Part shown: positions 27,509 through 45,285 of the stretch, in pieces
How positions within the stretch are numbered: position 1 is the first letter of the stretch
Layout: every line of letters begins with the position of its first letter
Assembly (NCBI GenBank): GCA_902775345.1
Contig: CACYLW010000012.1
Span: 23,874 to 87,873 of the forward strand
Direction: 5' to 3'
Length of the DNA: 64,000 bases
From: an uncultured Eubacteriales bacterium
GTDB lineage: Bacteria; Bacillota; Clostridia; Peptostreptococcales; Anaerovoracaceae
Made by a program: the position numbers and the translations under genes
The notes under the pieces: generated by a model
The model's database searches: none
Told to the model about the DNA's origin: nothing
The model's input: only the letters and a program-made list of their open reading frames with translations

Positions 27509-27819
27509 CCAGATTTTTTTTAAAAAACAAAAACCCGTCATCTTCACATTTTGTTCGTTTTTTTGCCACAGCGTTTTCAACAAAACGGGAAAGCCTTAAT
27601 TTCCAAGGTTTAAGACTTTTCCACAAGGTTTTGAAAAATCGTATACAATCTTTTCCACTTATGCATGTGGAAAACTTCAAGTGGCGTTTCGTTGAAATTT
27701 CAACGTTTGAAACGATTTTTATTTTCTGTCAACAGGATTTATCCACATATTTTAAATTTTTGCGGCACGCGATTTTGTTCGATTTCGTGAAACGCGTGAA
27801 ACATCGGAAAGGAACCGAC
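27509..27819. promoter_or_regulatory. AT-rich region with DnaA-box-like repeats
   Basis: A 311-bp gap before the AlaX gene. TTATCCACA (27739-27747) is a consensus DnaA box. TTTTCCACA (27617-27625), TTTTCCACT (27651-27659) and TGTGGAAAA (27666-27674, reverse) are near matches. A perfect palindrome GTTGAAATTTCAAC lies at 27691-27704. The region is rich in A and T runs. It could be a DnaA-bound control or titration site. No dnaA, rpmH or gyrB lies near it. Confidence 0.4.
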
Positions 27820-29055
27820 ATGGTTACAAGAAGAATATACCAGAGCGATCCATATGCTGTAATGAACGAGGCTTTGATCACCTCCGTACGCGAAAAAAAC
27901 GGCGTGGATGTGATCGCCTGCGACACTTCCGTATTCTATCCGGAGGGCGGAGGTCAGCCTTCCGACACCGGAACCGTATCCCTCTGCGGAACACAGCAGG
28001 TCTATAAAGTGACCCGCGCATCTGACGAGTCACTGGATAGTGACGTATGGCATGCAACTGATGCTCCGGCCGGAACTTTCAGCACCGGAGACAGGGTCGT
28101 GCTGAATATCGACCGCGATCTGCGCTTCAGGAACATGCAGCGCCACTGCGGCGAGCACATGCTGAGCGGAACCATGGATACTCTCTTCGGAGGGGTCAAC
28201 AAGGGGTTCCACATGGGTGACGAATACATCACCATAGACATAGATCTCGGCGGGCGCATGCTCACGGATGAAGAGCTCGATCTCGCTGAGCGCACCGTAA
28301 ACGAAGCTATCTGGGCTGATCTCCCGGTGACGGTCACCTGGTTCGACGATTATGAATCATCGCTCGCGCTGCCGGTACGCAAGAGGGTCCCTCATGACGG
28401 CAGGGTATCCGTGGTGACAGTAGGTGACCTGAATGATCCGTATGACTGCATCGCATGCTGCGGTACTCACCCGGCCAGATCATCCGAAGTCGGACTGCTT
28501 GCTATCTACAAGCGCGAGCCAAACAAGGGCATGAACCGCATTTACTTTGACTGCGGAAAAGCCGCATTCAGAAGGCTCAGCGCAGACTCAAAGATACTCG
28601 CTGAAGCAGCCAGGCGCTATTCCTGCTCCCCTGCCGACTTTATCGGAAGACTCGATGCCGAAGCTGAAAATATCTCTGCCCTCAAGGCAAAGCTCGCAGC
28701 CACGACATCGTATATAAAGGAAGCGGAAAAGGAAAAGATACTGGGCGCGGTCGCGGATGCCGGAGCTTCAGGTTATGTATACAGCTCGGATATACTCAGC
28801 GCTGATGATCTTCTGAAGCTTGGTTTTTCTGTCATCAATGAAACGCCGGGACTCTTCCTGATCATGAGACAGCCGGATTCGCACACATGTCTGCTCCTGT
28901 CCTCTTCTGAGGAACGCAAGTGCGGCGCCATAGTAAAGGCAAACGCGAAGAACTTCAGCGGCAAGGGCGGCGGACGCGATGACAACGCCAGAGCCATCTT
29001 CCCTTCAACTGCCGACATGGACGCTTTCATCGGAGAAATATCATCCCAAAACTGA
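27820..29055 (+). CDS. Alanyl-tRNA editing protein, AlaX type
   Basis: A 411-residue free-standing editing protein related to the editing domain of AlaRS, which removes Ser or Gly wrongly attached to tRNA-Ala. The N-terminal half shows FYPEGGGQPSDTG and the metal sites RHCGEHMLSG (HxxxH) and CIACCGTHPARSSEVG (CxxxH). The second half resembles the DHHA1 domain and ends FSGKGGGRDDNARAIF. This fits the long AlaX form. The ATG at 27820 is chosen for the family N-terminus and GGAAAGG upstream. Confidence 0.9.
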   Translation: MVTRRIYQSDPYAVMNEALITSVREKNGVDVIACDTSVFYPEGGGQPSDTGTVSLCGTQQVYKVTRASDESLDSDVWHATDAPAGTFSTGDRVVLNIDRDLRFRNMQRHCGEHMLSGTMDTLFGGVNKGFHMGDEYITIDIDLGGRMLTDEELDLAERTVNEAIWADLPVTVTWFDDYESSLALPVRKRVPHDGRVSVVTVGDLNDPYDCIACCGTHPARSSEVGLLAIYKREPNKGMNRIYFDCGKAAFRRLSADSKILAEAARRYSCSPADFIGRLDAEAENISALKAKLAATTSYIKEAEKEKILGAVADAGASGYVYSSDILSADDLLKLGFSVINETPGLFLIMRQPDSHTCLLLSSSEERKCGAIVKANAKNFSGKGGGRDDNARAIFPSTADMDAFIGEISSQN

Positions 29056-40802: not shown

Positions 40803-41375
40803 CTAGATCTTTATATCGATATCAAAGCTCGACTTGTAAGGGATCACCATTCCGGAGTCTCCCTCACGTCTCGCTTTTCTTGTCTTCTTCATATCGATAA
40901 CACGCTGGTTCTCGGATCCGCAGTACACGAGAGTCAGGTTGCGCAGACGCTCGTCGTACCTTCCGTCAACAAGGATATCGAGCATCTCCAGAAGCTCGTC
41001 TGTATCTTTATCATGCCTGGCTTCGAGTTCTTCGAGCGTATAGCCGCTGTAACTCATCAGCGTGAGCCCGGCTCCCTTAATGTTCTTCGCAAGATCAAGA
41101 AGCGCAGGCACCTGCTCGAAAGGCTCTCCGCCGGAGAAAGTCACGCCGCGCAGCCAAGGTCTGCCGCATATATCCTCAAAGACCTCGTTGACCGTCATGT
41201 CGTATCCGGCATCAAAGGCCCATGACTCAGGGTTGTGGCATCCATGGCAGTGATGCGGGCAGCCCTGTACGAAAATCACGTACCTGAAACCCGGTCCGTC
41301 TACTATCGACTCCGGCTCAATGCCGCACATTCTTATTACTTTGCTTTTATCTCTGCTTTTGTCCAGCTCAACCAT
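40803..41375 (-). CDS. nrdG: Anaerobic ribonucleotide reductase activase NrdG
   Basis: A 190-residue radical-SAM enzyme that installs the glycyl radical on NrdD. The [4Fe-4S] motif is QGCPHHCHGCHNPESW (Cys-x3-Cys-x2-Cys), followed by GVTFSGGEPFEQV. The ATG at 41375 is preferred (GAAGAGG upstream); an upstream ATG-like start would add 12 residues. Its target glycine is on the separate 55-residue protein encoded just upstream. Confidence 0.93.
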   Translation of the reverse strand: MVELDKSRDKSKVIRMCGIEPESIVDGPGFRYVIFVQGCPHHCHGCHNPESWAFDAGYDMTVNEVFEDICGRPWLRGVTFSGGEPFEQVPALLDLAKNIKGAGLTLMSYSGYTLEELEARHDKDTDELLEMLDILVDGRYDERLRNLTLVYCGSENQRVIDMKKTRKARREGDSGMVIPYKSSFDIDIKI

Positions 41376-41400
41376 TGCGGTACCTCTTCTTTCACAAAAA

Positions 41401-41432
41401 TAGCCGCCCACCTCTATGCGGTTAAGGCGGCC
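41401..41432 (-). terminator. Attenuator-like hairpin before nrdG
   Basis: Read leftwards, GGCCGCC and GGCGGC arms enclose a loop of about 17 bases and are followed by TATTTTTG. It lies between the radical-domain gene and nrdG and could lower NrdG relative to its substrate. Confidence 0.5.
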
Positions 41433-41452: not shown

Positions 41453-41620
41453 TTAGTTGTGGGACAGTCCGTGCTTGACTCTGTCCTGTACTTCAGCTCT
41501 CTTGCCGTTGTTGAATCTGTCGAGTGTTCCTACGAGATATCCTGTGATTCTTCTGATTCTCTCGAAGCCAACGCCTTCACCGACCTGGCCGTTTACATTC
41601 TTTACTACCTTGTTATTCAT
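41453..41620 (-). CDS. Free-standing glycyl-radical domain of class III RNR
   Basis: A 55-residue protein. FERIRRITGYLVGTLDRFNN and GKRAEVQDRVKH match the extreme C-terminus of NrdD proteins, including the R-x-x-GYL box that holds the radical glycine. The main nrdD gene lacks this segment. A strong GGAGGT lies 7 bases before the ATG, and the gene lies between nrdD and nrdG. It therefore looks like a functional domain supplied in trans, comparable in principle to GrcA/YfiD for pyruvate formate-lyase. I know of no name for it. It is not a frameshift remnant: it has its own start and the nrdD end is different sequence. Confidence 0.8.
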   Translation of the reverse strand: MNNKVVKNVNGQVGEGVGFERIRRITGYLVGTLDRFNNGKRAEVQDRVKHGLSHN

Positions 41621-41738
41621 AACGGTACCTCCGTGCTAGTCATTCTTTTGGTGCGCAATCATTCTATGCCCTGAAAAGGCATTTGTAAAGCAATATTAAT
41701 GTATATTGTTGTATCTTTTGAGCTAAACCACATCATCT

Positions 41739-41771
41739 TGTGGATAAGTCTGTGGAAAACCCTGTGGATAA
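41739..41771. promoter_or_regulatory. Three DnaA boxes spaced 12 bp
   Basis: TGTGGATAA (41739), TGTGGAAAA (41751) and TGTGGATAA (41763) are three same-direction DnaA-type boxes at an exact 12-bp step. Two match the consensus. They lie right after the nrdD stop codon, in the gap before the radical-domain gene. A link between DnaA and dNTP supply is known for E. coli nrdAB; here it is an inference. Confidence 0.6.
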
Positions 41772-41786
41772 TCTTTTTCCGCCTGA

Positions 41787-44063
41787 TCAGTGGATGCAGT
41801 CGCATGGAACCGGTACACTCGGGAATCTCATGCGAAGCTCATTCAGTCTCTCGATCGTAACAGGCTCGCCCTCGCGTCTTCCGCATCTCGGGCAGACATC
41901 ATCGATAACTCCCGTATATCCGCAGACCGGGTCTCTGTCTACCGGATGGTTGACCGAACCGTATCCGACACCTGCTTCCTTCATGTATCTGATGACAGAT
42001 TCGAAAGCCTCAGGGTTCTTCGCGGTATCTCCGTCGAGTTCAACATAGCTGATGTGGCCTGCATTTGTAAGATCGTGGTAAGGCGCCTCGATAGCGATCT
42101 TCTCGAAAGCTCCGATCGGATAGTATACAGGAACGTGGAACGAGTTGGTGTAGTAGTCCCTGTCTGTGATTCCAGGCAGCTTGCCGTACTTTTCTCTGTC
42201 GATCTTTACGAATCTTCCGGAAAGTCCCTCAGCCGGTGTAGCCAGCAGTGTGAAGTTGAGGCCCGTCTCAGCGCTCTTTCTGTCGCAGACTTCTCTCATG
42301 TGCTTGATGATCTCAAACGCCTGCTCTCTTGCTCTCTCATCTTCACCGTGGTGCTTTCCTGTCAGAGCCTTCATTGTCTCGGCAAGTCCGATGAATCCGA
42401 TCGAAAGTGTGCCGTTCTTGAGGATCTCAGCGACACTGTCATCCGGTCCGATATTGTCGGAGTCGATCCAGATCCCCTGTCCCATCAGGAACGGATAGTT
42501 GCGGCCCTTCTTGCTGCACTGGATCTTAAATCTGTGGAGCAGCTGTCTGGCAACGAGATCCATCATTGCGTCGAGTTTCCTGTAGAATACATCGAAGTCC
42601 CTGTTCGACTCTATGGCGAGTCTAGGCAGGTTGATCGATGTGAACGAGAGGTTTCCTCTGCCGCATACTACAGCCTTTGTAGGGTCATAGTTGTTGGCCA
42701 TTACTCTCGTGCGGCATCCCATGTAAGCAACTTCTGAGTTGTAGTCGCCCGGCTTGTAGAACTTCTTGTTGAACGGAGCATCGAGGAAGCTGAAGTTAGG
42801 GAACAGCCTCTTTGCGCTGCATCTTATAGCCAGCTTGAAGAGATCATAGTTAGGATCCCCTTCGTTGTAGTTGACGCCCTCTTTTACCTTGAAGATCGAA
42901 ACCGGGAAGATAGGTGTTTCGCCGTTTCCGAGACCTGCCTCTGTAGCGAGCAGGAAGTTCTTGATGACCATGCGGCCTTCAGGAGTCGTGTCAGTACCGA
43001 AGTTTACCGAACTGAACGGAACCTGCGCGCCCGCTCTGGAGTTCATGGTGTTGAGGTTGTGGATGAGAGCCTCCATTGCCTGGTAAGTCATCTTGTCAGT
43101 CCTTGCCCATGCCGCCTCTGCAGCCTGAGCGCTGCATCTTACCAGCTGCTCTCTGGTGAGTCCACCGGCCCAGCCCGTCTTATCGAGCCACTCGCCCAGC
43201 ACTTCGCCGTACGATCCGTTGGTCGCAAGTGTCGGAGCCGGTGCCTCGGCTCTGATCTTCTCAGAGATAGCCTTCGCGTCCGGATATGCTGCGTCGAGCT
43301 TTGCAGCGATGATCTCGGTAAGCGCGGAGAAGAATTCCTTTATATATGTTCTTGCTACGCCCGGAGCCATCGCATAGTCGAAGTTAGGTACCGACTGGCC
43401 GCCGTGCATCTCGTTCTGGTTGGCCTGGATCGCGATGCATGCCAGTGAAGCATAGCTCATGATCGACTGCGGCTCTCTGAGGTAGCCGTGGCCCGTGCAG
43501 AAACCGTCCTTGAAGAGCTTTATCAGGTCGATCTGGCAGCATGTCTCGGTGAGCATGTAGAAGTCCTTGTCGTGGATATGGATGTCACCGTTGATGTGAG
43601 CCTTGGCGATGTCTTTCGGAAGCACGTAGTTGTCTACAAAGTACTTGGCGCCTTCCGAACCATACTTGAGCATGGTTCCCATCGATGTGTCACCGTCGAT
43701 GTTGGCGTTTTCTCTCTTGATGTCTGCATCCTTTGAGTAAGAATAAGTAAGTTCGTTGTAGATGTTCATCAGATCCGATTCAGCTTCACGGATCTTCGCG
43801 TGCTCAGCGCGGTAAAGGATGTAAGCCTTTGCGGTCTTTTCCCAGTCATACTTGATGAGCATTGCCTCGACGATATCCTGTACCTGCTCTACAGTACATG
43901 TCTCGCCGTCAAGCTGCTCTACGACTTTCTTTGTGAGATAGGTGAAGTCGATGCTAGTCATCCTCTCGCCGTCTACAGCCTTGTTCGCTGCGTAGATAGC
44001 GTTGAAGATCTTAGACTCATCGAACGGCATCTCCTTGCCGTCTCTCTTGATAATGCTTTTCAT
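41787..44063 (-). CDS. nrdD: Anaerobic ribonucleotide reductase NrdD lacking the radical domain
   Basis: A 758-residue class III reductase that makes deoxynucleotides from NTPs without oxygen. An ATP-cone occupies residues 1-95 (MKSIIKRDGKEMPFDESKIF). The barrel contains GDIHIHDKDFYMLTETCCQI and QNEMHGGQSVPNFDYAMAPG. Near the C-terminus are DPVCGYTGVIDDVCPRCGRR, part of the zinc knuckle, with one Cys apparently replaced by Asp. After this it reads TIERLNELRMRFPSVPVPCD and stops. The RxxGYL radical segment is absent; it is encoded separately 167 bases downstream. NrdR boxes precede it. Confidence 0.93.
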   Translation of the reverse strand: MKSIIKRDGKEMPFDESKIFNAIYAANKAVDGERMTSIDFTYLTKKVVEQLDGETCTVEQVQDIVEAMLIKYDWEKTAKAYILYRAEHAKIREAESDLMNIYNELTYSYSKDADIKRENANIDGDTSMGTMLKYGSEGAKYFVDNYVLPKDIAKAHINGDIHIHDKDFYMLTETCCQIDLIKLFKDGFCTGHGYLREPQSIMSYASLACIAIQANQNEMHGGQSVPNFDYAMAPGVARTYIKEFFSALTEIIAAKLDAAYPDAKAISEKIRAEAPAPTLATNGSYGEVLGEWLDKTGWAGGLTREQLVRCSAQAAEAAWARTDKMTYQAMEALIHNLNTMNSRAGAQVPFSSVNFGTDTTPEGRMVIKNFLLATEAGLGNGETPIFPVSIFKVKEGVNYNEGDPNYDLFKLAIRCSAKRLFPNFSFLDAPFNKKFYKPGDYNSEVAYMGCRTRVMANNYDPTKAVVCGRGNLSFTSINLPRLAIESNRDFDVFYRKLDAMMDLVARQLLHRFKIQCSKKGRNYPFLMGQGIWIDSDNIGPDDSVAEILKNGTLSIGFIGLAETMKALTGKHHGEDERAREQAFEIIKHMREVCDRKSAETGLNFTLLATPAEGLSGRFVKIDREKYGKLPGITDRDYYTNSFHVPVYYPIGAFEKIAIEAPYHDLTNAGHISYVELDGDTAKNPEAFESVIRYMKEAGVGYGSVNHPVDRDPVCGYTGVIDDVCPRCGRREGEPVTIERLNELRMRFPSVPVPCDCIH

Positions 44064-44206: not shown

Positions 44207-44253
44207 ACACTATATATTGTAGTCATGGCTCTATTATGTGTCAATATATTGTT
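44207..44253 (-). promoter_or_regulatory. Tandem NrdR boxes
   Basis: ACACTATATATTGT (44207-44220) matches the NrdR box consensus. A second, TGTCAATATATTGTTA (about 44238-44253), lies with its centre 33 bp away, three helical turns. Paired NrdR boxes at this spacing are the usual repressor site upstream of nrd operons. A third weak match lies near 41693-41712. Confidence 0.8.
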
Positions 44254-44370: not shown

Positions 44371-45285
44371 ATGTATAAGTTACACAAGGTCAGAGATATA
44401 GATATAATCGGCGTTCAGATCGACTTTGGCGCATCACAGAAAGGCGTTGCGATGGGACCGCTTGCCATCCGCTATGCAGGTGTAAGGGAGGATCTCCGCA
44501 AGATGGGCTACACGGTCCTCGATAAAGGCGACATAATCCCTCCGCCTGACGGTATGAGCCTTCGCCACATGATCCGCTTCGAGCAGGTGAACGCCACCAA
44601 CAGGCAGCTCTATGAGGCAGTCTATGAGACTCTTTCGAAAGGTCATTTCCCTCTCGTTCTCGGAGGCGATCACAGCATAGCTGCGGGAAGCGTCTCCGCT
44701 GTCGCCAAGCACTATGAGCCTGAAGGCGAGATCGGCGTGATCTGGATAGACGCTCACGGCGACTGGAACGACGACAAGTCAACGCTCAGCGGCAACATGC
44801 ACGGCATGCCCTATTCGGCAATCTGCGGGTGGGGTCCTTCAAGCATGGTGAACTTCGGGCAGACGCCTCACTACGTTCCGACTGCTCACTGCGTGCAGGT
44901 AGGCGGTCACGATTTCGACGAGCCTGAAGCTGCCCGCATGAAGGAGGCCGGCATGAACGTATTCCCTATGGGCGATATCGACAGACGCGGCATGCACGAG
45001 GTGATGAAAGACGCCATCCGTATAGCTGGCGAAGGTACGGTCGGCATACACCTCAGTTTCGATGTTGATGCCATCACCCCGGAATACGCGCCCGGTACGG
45101 GAACGCCGGTACCTAACGGGATCACCGCAAGAGAAGCTTTCCTCGCCGTAGAGATGCTGGCTGACTCCGGCAAGCTCCTCTCGATGGATCTTGTTGAAGT
45201 CAACCCTATCCTCGATGAGCGCAATAAGACAGGGCAGCTCGCCTCCGATCTCATACAGCTCGCGCTCGGCAGAAAATTCTACTGA
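44371..45285 (+). CDS. rocF: Arginase
   Basis: A 304-residue manganese ureohydrolase. The metal-site motifs are LGGDHSIAAGSVSAV, GVIWIDAHGDWNDD and LSFDVDAITPEYAPGTGTPV. The loop with GAS-QKGVAMGPLAIRYAG fits arginase better than agmatinase. It splits arginine into ornithine and urea. GAGGAG lies upstream. It is a single gene facing away from nrdD. Confidence 0.9.
   Translation: MYKLHKVRDIDIIGVQIDFGASQKGVAMGPLAIRYAGVREDLRKMGYTVLDKGDIIPPPDGMSLRHMIRFEQVNATNRQLYEAVYETLSKGHFPLVLGGDHSIAAGSVSAVAKHYEPEGEIGVIWIDAHGDWNDDKSTLSGNMHGMPYSAICGWGPSSMVNFGQTPHYVPTAHCVQVGGHDFDEPEAARMKEAGMNVFPMGDIDRRGMHEVMKDAIRIAGEGTVGIHLSFDVDAITPEYAPGTGTPVPNGITAREAFLAVEMLADSGKLLSMDLVEVNPILDERNKTGQLASDLIQLALGRKFY

What the first reader, a model, noticed from the sequence alone, without database searches (positions are those of the whole stretch)
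41453..44063. Class III ribonucleotide reductase with its glycyl-radical domain encoded by a separate 55-aa gene
NrdD here (758 aa) reads through the zinc-knuckle region and then ends in a different sequence, with no RxxGYL radical box. A 55-aa protein 167 bases downstream, with its own GGAGGT ribosome-binding site, is the missing C-terminal segment (FERIRRITGYL, RFNNGKRAEVQDRV). nrdG follows. A trans-acting radical domain is established for pyruvate formate-lyase (GrcA/YfiD); I do not know of a natural split in NrdD. A split would let the cell exchange a damaged radical domain or regulate it separately.
Basis: partly seen in the sequence, partly recalled or inferred. Interest (0 to 1): 0.85.

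Follow-up and report, generated by a model that had tools for sequence, protein, structure and literature searches.

The report
Anaerobic DNA-precursor enzyme with detachable radical
In this gut bacterium the oxygen-free enzyme that makes DNA building blocks lacks the piece that carries its essential radical, and a separate 55-residue protein encoded next door appears to supply it; similar stand-alone pieces occur in other gut bacteria and on mobile DNA and phages.

Summary
The window's NrdD (758 aa) matches positions 1-531 of the 562-position Pfam NRDD model; the 55-aa ORF downstream matches the missing 533-562, with radical glycine G27 and its own ribosome-binding site; nrdG follows. It is not an artefact: 30 of 36 genus genomes show the split. 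None of 21 genus genomes searched has a class I/II large subunit (17 of the 21 carry the split), so the split enzyme is apparently their RNR. Of the best 80 loci of a genome scan, 58 have truncated nrdD plus small gene, across several phyla. Most likely the small protein is an obligate, exchangeable radical subunit, activated by NrdG and docking non-covalently, working like GrcA/YfiD but homologous to NrdD. A DnaA-box array before the small gene suggests replication-linked control in the window's clade. The chemistry is inferred; structure prediction did not settle docking.

The parts
41787..44063 (-). nrdD core, 758 aa: ATP-cone, catalytic barrel (C175; MGCR finger loop with C450), cysteine knuckle C714/C724/C727, then a 29-residue tail in place of the glycyl-radical domain
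   Evidence: Pfam NRDD 1-531 and ATP-cone; residue positions; invariance over 25 rows
41453..41620 (-). stand-alone glycyl-radical domain gene (55 aa; radical Gly27 by homology, codon 41540-41542)
   Evidence: Pfam NRDD 533-562; purifying selection, pN/pS 0.087 over 16 genus copies
41787..41876 (-). replacement C-terminal tail of NrdD (residues 730-758 and stop), under purifying selection, CDC kept in 16 of 16 genus copies
   Evidence: pN/pS 0.117 against 0.098 for the preceding 145 codons; similarity to the radical domain, (window pair p about 0.017)
41627..41632 (-). ribosome-binding site GGAGGT of the small gene
   Evidence: GGAGGT invariant in the 9-row alignment
41661..41689 (-). promoter-like site of the small gene (TTTACA-17-TAGAAT)
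   Evidence: where the number of promoter-like sites in the region (2) is not above shuffles (mean 3.1); the support is conservation
41691..41708 (-). inverted repeat CAATAT-N6-ATATTG next to the -35 hexamer, putative operator
   Evidence: read; present in 8 of the 9 rows
41739..41771 (-). array of three DnaA-box sequences at 12-nt period (41739-41747, 41751-41759, 41763-41771)
   Evidence: 6 matches in the window, chance mean 0.74; in 9 of 16 genus operons, one box degenerate in two of the nine
40803..41411 (-). nrdG, radical-SAM activase
   Evidence: TIGR02491, 147.9 bits, cut-off 126.1
44207..44244 (-). nrdD promoter-like site (TTGACA-17-TACAAT, 44216-44244) overlapping an NrdR-box-like sequence (44207-44222)
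   Evidence: counts of both patterns are at chance level, and the NrdR name and consensus are recalled

Best explanation
This is a class III ribonucleotide reductase made of two polypeptides. NrdD keeps the allosteric cone, the catalytic barrel with its thiyl-radical cysteine and the cysteine knuckle, but the last ~40 residues (radical glycine loop plus C-terminal helix) are a separate 55-aa protein. NrdG would put the radical on Gly27 of that protein, which docks non-covalently where the fused domain normally sits and passes the radical to C450 of NrdD. Because the domain is separate it can be replaced after oxygen cleavage, limited in supply to switch the enzyme, and provided by other copies. 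The split most likely arose by tandem duplication of the 3' end of nrdD followed by decay of the first copy. Shown here: the split, its conservation, purifying selection on both halves and on the new tail, absence of other detected RNRs in the genus genomes searched, recurrence across phyla, and further copies with conjugation genes and on viral contigs. Inferred: complex formation, radical on Gly27, exchange after damage, the duplication origin, and DnaA control.
For: Complementary halves of one Pfam domain. Split in 30 of 36 genus genomes. No PF02867 in 21 of 21 genus genomes searched (17 of them carry the split) and no PF00268 in 13 of 13 (10 carry the split; own), so the enzyme presumably must work. 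In 8 of 11 other genomes with only truncated NrdD, no PF02867, and in those 8 no PF00268; one is the named strain Massiliimalia timonensis Marseille-P3753 (title). Of 80 genome loci, 58 have truncated NrdD plus solo domain. Reading frames of the two genes are unlinked (24/32/16 of 72 pairs). pN/pS 0.087 for the small gene. Catalytic cysteines invariant over 25 rows. NrdD tails resemble the radical domain at p<0.05 in 45 of 68 pairs.
Against: No biochemistry. The AlphaFold2 model of a read-through protein from a close relative has a good NrdD body, but its radical domain has block pLDDT of 40-67 and residues 808-822, the glycine loop included, are under 50, so docking is not shown. Genomes are mostly MAGs (own 90.5% complete); in 4 of the 21 genus genomes (G002, G009, G010, G020) no RNR of any kind was found, which shows that incompleteness can hide such genes. 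Two of 36 genus genomes have only other, fused NrdD types (G031, G034). Of the 11 other genomes, 3 do have a class I/II large subunit, and G062 has a further partial NrdD-like match (164-504). No test of oxygen repair was possible.
Confidence: 0.87

Rival explanations
1. The two genes are joined at translation or by splicing (stop read-through, frameshift, bypass, trans-splicing), so the final protein is an ordinary full-length NrdD.
For: In some relatives a single stop codon separates the two open frames, for example L054, L059, L083 and L085.
Against: Frames are spread 24/32/16 over 72 pairs with gaps from 1 to 284 nt (near relatives are counted apart); solo copies lie without any nrdD in the locus; the NrdD tail is conserved as an end of its own; a ribosome-binding site and upstream elements are conserved in the window's clade.
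Confidence: 0.05
2. NrdD is inactive or works without a glycyl radical, and the small protein has another role, for example as a regulator or decoy of NrdG.
For: Solo domains occur without nrdD in the locus on viral contigs and beside conjugation genes, where a host-directed role is possible.
Against: NrdD is the only RNR detected in the genus genomes that carry it and were searched and is constrained; an nrdG lies in the locus in 53 of 58 such cases; the solo proteins keep the radical motif (partly by construction of my pattern).
Confidence: 0.05
3. Assembly or sequencing error, or a decaying pseudogene.
For: Most genomes are metagenome bins.
Against: Same layout in 30 of 36 genus genomes and in 58 of 80 loci, some from named strains; low pN/pS in both parts.
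Confidence: 0.01
4. The separate domain exists mainly for repair after oxygen damage (a GrcA-like spare part) rather than as an obligate subunit.
For: Intact NrdD plus solo domain in 8 Ruminococcus-related genomes and in G165, G208, G151; the second copy in G013 sits between a rubrerythrin and a CRP/FNR-type regulator; GrcA/YfiD repairs cleaved PFL (PMC8683613, passages).
Against: In the window's genus this NrdD has no domain of its own, so a partner is needed for any glycyl-radical activity; both roles may hold.
Confidence: 0.3

Closest known systems
GrcA/YfiD of E. coli and Y06I of phage T4 (autonomous glycyl radical cofactor for pyruvate formate-lyase)
   Same: Small separate protein carrying a glycyl-radical domain for a larger glycyl radical enzyme; known from a bacterium and a phage (PMC8683613, passages).
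   Different: GrcA belongs with the PFL-type domain and repairs an enzyme born complete; the window's protein matches NRDD and not PF01228, and its NrdD is born without the domain.
Fused class III ribonucleotide reductases (Prevotella copri NrdD 8p23, S. thermophilus 9d3x, phage T4 NrdD 1h78)
   Same: Same enzyme: barrel, MGCR finger loop, cysteine knuckle, NrdG partner; the NrdD profile matches 8p23 in three stretches, the last being the radical domain.
   Different: The radical domain is part of the same chain there (shown for 8p23, recalled for the others); here it is a separate gene.
NrdJa/NrdJb, split class II ribonucleotide reductase
   Same: An RNR whose C-terminal domain is encoded by a separate gene (PMC5704485, passages).
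   Different: There the separate piece is a cysteine-rich domain for reduction, not the radical carrier.
T4-like phage ORF vs.6
   Same: A phage ORF with a Gly_radical match, suggested in 2006 to play a role in nucleotide metabolism (PMC1524935, passages).
   Different: Its match is to the Gly_radical family, and no split NrdD is described in the passages seen.
Class I RNR alpha/beta
   Same: Radical carrier and catalytic subunit are separate proteins (PMC9669993, passages).
   Different: Ferritin-like beta subunit with another cofactor; not related to this domain.

Membership tests
Class III RNR (NrdD) | NRDD catalytic domain and ATP-cone | tested here: met
   PF13597 1-531 at 635.6 bits and PF03477; NF005497 1053 bits, cut-off 764
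Class III RNR (NrdD) | Finger-loop thiyl-radical cysteine and beta-A cysteine | tested here: met
   C450 in MGCR and C175, invariant over 25 rows; their roles are assigned by homology
Class III RNR (NrdD) | Glycyl-radical domain in the same chain | tested here: not met
   NrdD ends before it; the domain is a separate ORF
Class III RNR (NrdD) | NrdG activase | tested here: met
   nrdG 40803-41411
Class III RNR (NrdD) | Glycyl radical and NTP reduction | not testable with these tools
   needs EPR and an activity assay
GrcA/YfiD autonomous glycyl radical cofactor | Homology to the PFL-type Gly_radical domain (PF01228) | tested here: not met
   At E up to 1 the 55-aa protein matches NRDD and one chance family, not PF01228; the own genome's two PF01228 matches lie in frames of 795 and 796 aa
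GrcA/YfiD autonomous glycyl radical cofactor | Separate small radical-domain protein serving a larger enzyme in trans | tested here: inconclusive
   Separate gene shown; action in trans inferred from the missing domain and the lack of other detected RNRs
GrcA/YfiD autonomous glycyl radical cofactor | Restores an oxygen-cleaved enzyme | not testable with these tools
   needs biochemistry

The most novel reading that the evidence does not exclude
Gut anaerobes and their mobile elements share an exchangeable ~50-residue radical cartridge for anaerobic ribonucleotide reductase. It is an obligate subunit where NrdD has lost its own domain, a spare part where NrdD is intact, and a gene carried by phages and conjugative elements to keep or take control of the host's dNTP supply. 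In the window's clade its supply is tied to replication through a DnaA-box array upstream of its own promoter.
Probability: 0.45. Interest if true: 0.95.

Novelty: new variant of a known kind. Interest (0 to 1): 0.88.

Why it matters
In the class III reductases known to me the radical sits in the catalytic chain (seen for P. copri NrdD; recalled for the others). A natural two-part version gives a way to study glycyl-radical transfer between proteins with a 55-residue partner that could be made or labelled synthetically. It offers strong candidates for the published question whether spare-part proteins exist for glycyl radical enzymes other than PFL (raised in PMC8683613, passages). Copies on viral contigs and beside conjugation genes suggest that supply of this one small domain is worth carrying during phage growth or DNA transfer.

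Tried and rejected
AlphaFold2 on a read-through NrdD+domain protein and Foldseek: the body matches NrdD, the domain is poorly modelled, so no claim on docking. AlphaFold2 on the 98-aa form (mean pLDDT 64, about 80 in residues 1-50) and Foldseek: best E 0.11; several of the top hits are ribosome hibernation factors (HPF/YfiA), not claimed. Profile comparison of the 98-aa family with NrdD aligned only the radical domain, so the N-domain's origin is unknown.

G023 and G027 looked fused (one open frame shown for two matches) but are separate ORFs. Read-through was considered because of one-stop arrangements and rejected on frame counts (the script picks the best-looking start for each small gene, which is no test, and minus-strand loci carry a one-base offset in the printed stop and gap, which does not touch the frame counts).

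The tree of 97 NrdD (quick method, with long-branch warnings) needs 7 changes of the split/fused label, 5 forced by starred branches, so a single origin of all splits is not supported. One row, L135 (Prevotella), was labelled split by my pattern but is fused, so the counts may be slightly too high. The tail-versus-domain test is not corrected for many tests, contains near relatives, and both halves share an ancestral linker; 23 of 68 pairs had p of 0.05 or more. The TGYL core is kept partly because my pattern asks for it. In one search the last-CxxC rule misplaced the tail start of a few rows; the cysteine count uses the last 14 residues only.

DnaA boxes (TTWTCCACA within 350 nt upstream) were sought before other solo domains: 0 of 22 extra genus copies, 0 of 80 viral matches, 0 of 8 in the seven loci that I gave, and 3 of 72 stretches from L041-L112 (split, solo and fused mixed; one of the 3 from the window's genus). 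Within the genus 7 of 16 operons lack the array.

Plasmid and phage collections gave few hits: the one Clostridioides difficile plasmid record opened is fused, and the C. difficile phage hits are nrdD by annotation only; a record labelled plasmid of Subdoligranulum variabile is split. My notebook entries hold three slips: G023/G027 as fused (entry 2), a 4-Cys knuckle (entry 2; three cysteines) and 24 nt for G165 (entry 6; about 41 nt to the first ATG).
Full report
Observation. The window carries, on the minus strand, nrdD (44063-41787, 758 aa), a 55-aa ORF (41620-41453) and nrdG (41411-40803). Pfam NRDD has 562 positions; NrdD covers 1-531 and the small ORF 533-562. NrdD keeps C175, the MGCR loop with C450 and the cysteines C714, C724 and C727, then ends in a 29-residue tail after CPRCGR. 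Gly27 of the small protein is the homologue of the radical glycine of fused NrdD: the P. copri chain 8p23 aligns with the NrdD part of the profile up to residue 706 and with the radical domain from 707. The gap between the genes is 166 bases. The small gene has GGAGGT and a promoter-like site TTTACA-17-TAGAAT; the number of such sites in the region is not above chance (2 found, shuffles mean 3.1), so its support is conservation.

It is conserved and apparently functional. Of 36 genomes of the genus (own included), 30 have the truncated NrdD with the separate domain on the same contig; G031 and G034 show only other, fused NrdD types; G002, G009, G010 and G020 (59-86% complete) have no match (tallied by hand; the G034 end is printed). 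Record titles of matching contigs point to Mogibacterium-like bacteria. No PF02867 (class I/II large subunit) was found in 21 of 21 genus genomes searched, 17 of which carry the split; in the same of 14 genomes of other families of the order had a match, 8 of the 12 weak and partial. No PF00268 in 13 of 13 genus genomes, 10 with the split (own). G005, with the split and neither other RNR, is given as 99% complete. The split enzyme is therefore apparently their only RNR, with the caveat that 4 of the 21 genomes show no RNR at all. Uncorrected pN/pS is 0.087 for the small gene (16 genus copies), 0.117 for the new NrdD tail and 0.098 for the preceding 145 codons (16 copies). So the tail is not debris; its CDC motif is present in all 16.

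It is widespread. Of these 80, 58 have truncated NrdD plus a solo domain, 53 of the 58 with an nrdG in the locus; 14 have a solo domain without NrdD in the locus; 7 are fused; one (L044) escaped my pattern but reads as a solo domain. The 58 include, by record title, several Bacillota families, Fibrobacter, Desulfovibrio and Anaerobiospirillum. Frames of the two genes over 72 pairs are 24/32/16. In an even sample of the class, 61 of 196 genomes had a match to the small protein; besides the own genome I identified solo domains in seven: G225, G186, G275 and G259 with truncated NrdD, and G165, G208 and G151 with a fused one (G151's fused frame only); G104 and G120 stayed unclear. Of 11 genomes with only truncated NrdD reached through loci, 8 have no PF02867 and none of these 8 has PF00268; one is Massiliimalia timonensis. 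A tree of 97 NrdD cores needs 7 changes between split and fused, 5 forced, which means repeated splitting, re-fusion or transfer.

Origin. NrdD tails of split enzymes resemble the radical domain of their own locus: p<0.05 in 45 of 68 and p<0.01 in 18 of 68 against shuffles, best seen in L104 and Butyricicoccus loci. In G165 an intact NrdD is followed about 41 nt later by a 101-aa frame with a second, solo domain (L260), though with an extra N-terminal part. I infer 3' duplication and decay of the first copy; part of the similarity is the shared linker.

Spare and mobile copies. In the genus there are 22 extra solo domains in 12 genomes (counted). 18 of 22 lie with genes of one recurring conjugation gene set (some of these contigs are near copies of each other). 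In the own genome the set holds a relaxase, a VirD4-type coupling protein, PrgI, a VirB4/TraG-type ATPase and a CHAP protein, with a TrbL/VirB6-like match just below Pfam's cut-off. These 18 copies show pN/pS 0.254. Of the other four, one lies between a rubrerythrin and a CRP/FNR-type regulator (G013) and one beside a Fic protein (G005); two are unclear. In 8 Ruminococcus-related genomes (G066, G068, G070-G073, G079, G081) intact NrdD coexists with a solo form in open frames of 99-116 aa; where translated, this form has an extra N-terminal domain. G069 has a truncated NrdD and its solo domain on another contig. In IMG/VR 293 stretches encode a relative; of the best 80 contigs, 78 encode a solo domain, 4 of these with truncated NrdD in the locus, and 2 are fused; the other 213 were not examined, and ranking by the solo query favours solo forms. 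I scanned 20 neighbour proteins from 10 of these contigs: 4 of the 10 show phage structural, packaging or replication genes (L182 baseplate and tail; L216 terminase and portal; L189 terminase; L224 clamp loader); the rest gave methyltransferases, a reverse transcriptase, weak or no matches. PHROGs files six solo domains under full NrdD families, apart from one weak match.

Regulation. Between the nrdD stop and the small gene lie three DnaA-box sequences with a 12-nt period (41739-41771); TTWTCCACA occurs 6 times in the window against 0.74 expected, the other three at 27617-27747. The array is present in 9 of 16 genus operons, with one degenerate box in two of the nine, and these nine are one clade of the NrdD tree, SH-aLRT 99. 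An inverted repeat CAATAT-N6-ATATTG (8 of 9) and the promoter-like site follow. That these bind DnaA or NrdR is inference; the motif names are recalled. Copies elsewhere lack the array.

Mechanism. NrdG makes the radical on Gly27; the small protein docks at the site of the missing domain and hands the radical to C450; formate-type chemistry is suggested by MGCR (motif correlation in PMC9669993, passages). By analogy with YfiD, which was activated only with cleaved PFL present (PMC8683613, passages), activation may need the NrdD complex; this is inference. Of 65 distinct split tails, 30 have two or more cysteines in the last 14 residues, against 1 of 26 fused C-termini; they may complete the metal site or serve redox, unknown.

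Literature. Ten full-text searches of the open-licence library listed no paper that, in the listings or passages I saw, describes a split NrdD or a solo NrdD radical domain. Passages only were read of PMC9669993, PMC9531940, PMC4390871, PMC8683613, PMC11226230, PMC11528403, PMC3888941, PMC3322345, PMC1524935, PMC12338860, PMC12662201, PMC12288474, PMC12386605 and PMC5704485. Most subscription papers and bioRxiv preprints are not in that library, so prior description cannot be excluded. PMC8683613 says only YfiD and Y06I are validated and that spare parts for other enzymes are possible. PMC1524935 suggests a nucleotide role for a T4 ORF with a Gly_radical match. PMC5704485 describes the split class II NrdJa/NrdJb.

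Verdict. Real, conserved and apparently needed in its hosts; a new variant of the autonomous-radical-domain idea, applied to ribonucleotide reductase and carried on mobile DNA.

Noticed in passing
27617-27747: A second group of three TTWTCCACA sites, on both strands, at the 5' part of ORF 27631-29055, which looks like an alanyl-tRNA-editing type protein (name from reading, not from a call).
   Followed up: no
L259 (Eggerthella phage EL753P1), 3626-7100: Phage nrdD without a radical domain, with a long insert in the finger-loop region that reads like an intein, and a small downstream ORF that begins a radical domain but is interrupted in the record; annotated as hypothetical.
   Followed up: partly
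L142 (G031:C76): An 800-aa NrdD-type frame of another kind that ends in a thioredoxin-like sequence (name from reading).
   Followed up: no
L113 2784-5255: TIR plus TPR protein near the conjugation genes that carry the own genome's second radical domain.
   Followed up: no
L130 16278-19901: Cas12a-type protein about 6 kb from a solo radical domain in G015.
   Followed up: no
L097, L224, L260 and similar: An N-terminal domain of about 50 residues (b-a-b-b in the model) fused to solo radical domains in Ruminococcus-related genomes, viral contigs and others; origin unknown.
   Followed up: partly
window 41790-41801 and relatives: Split NrdD tails often end in two or more cysteines (30 of 65 distinct tails, against 1 of 26 fused ends).
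   Followed up: partly
44371-45285: Divergent neighbour of nrdD scores over the NCBIfam arginase cut-off.
   Followed up: no
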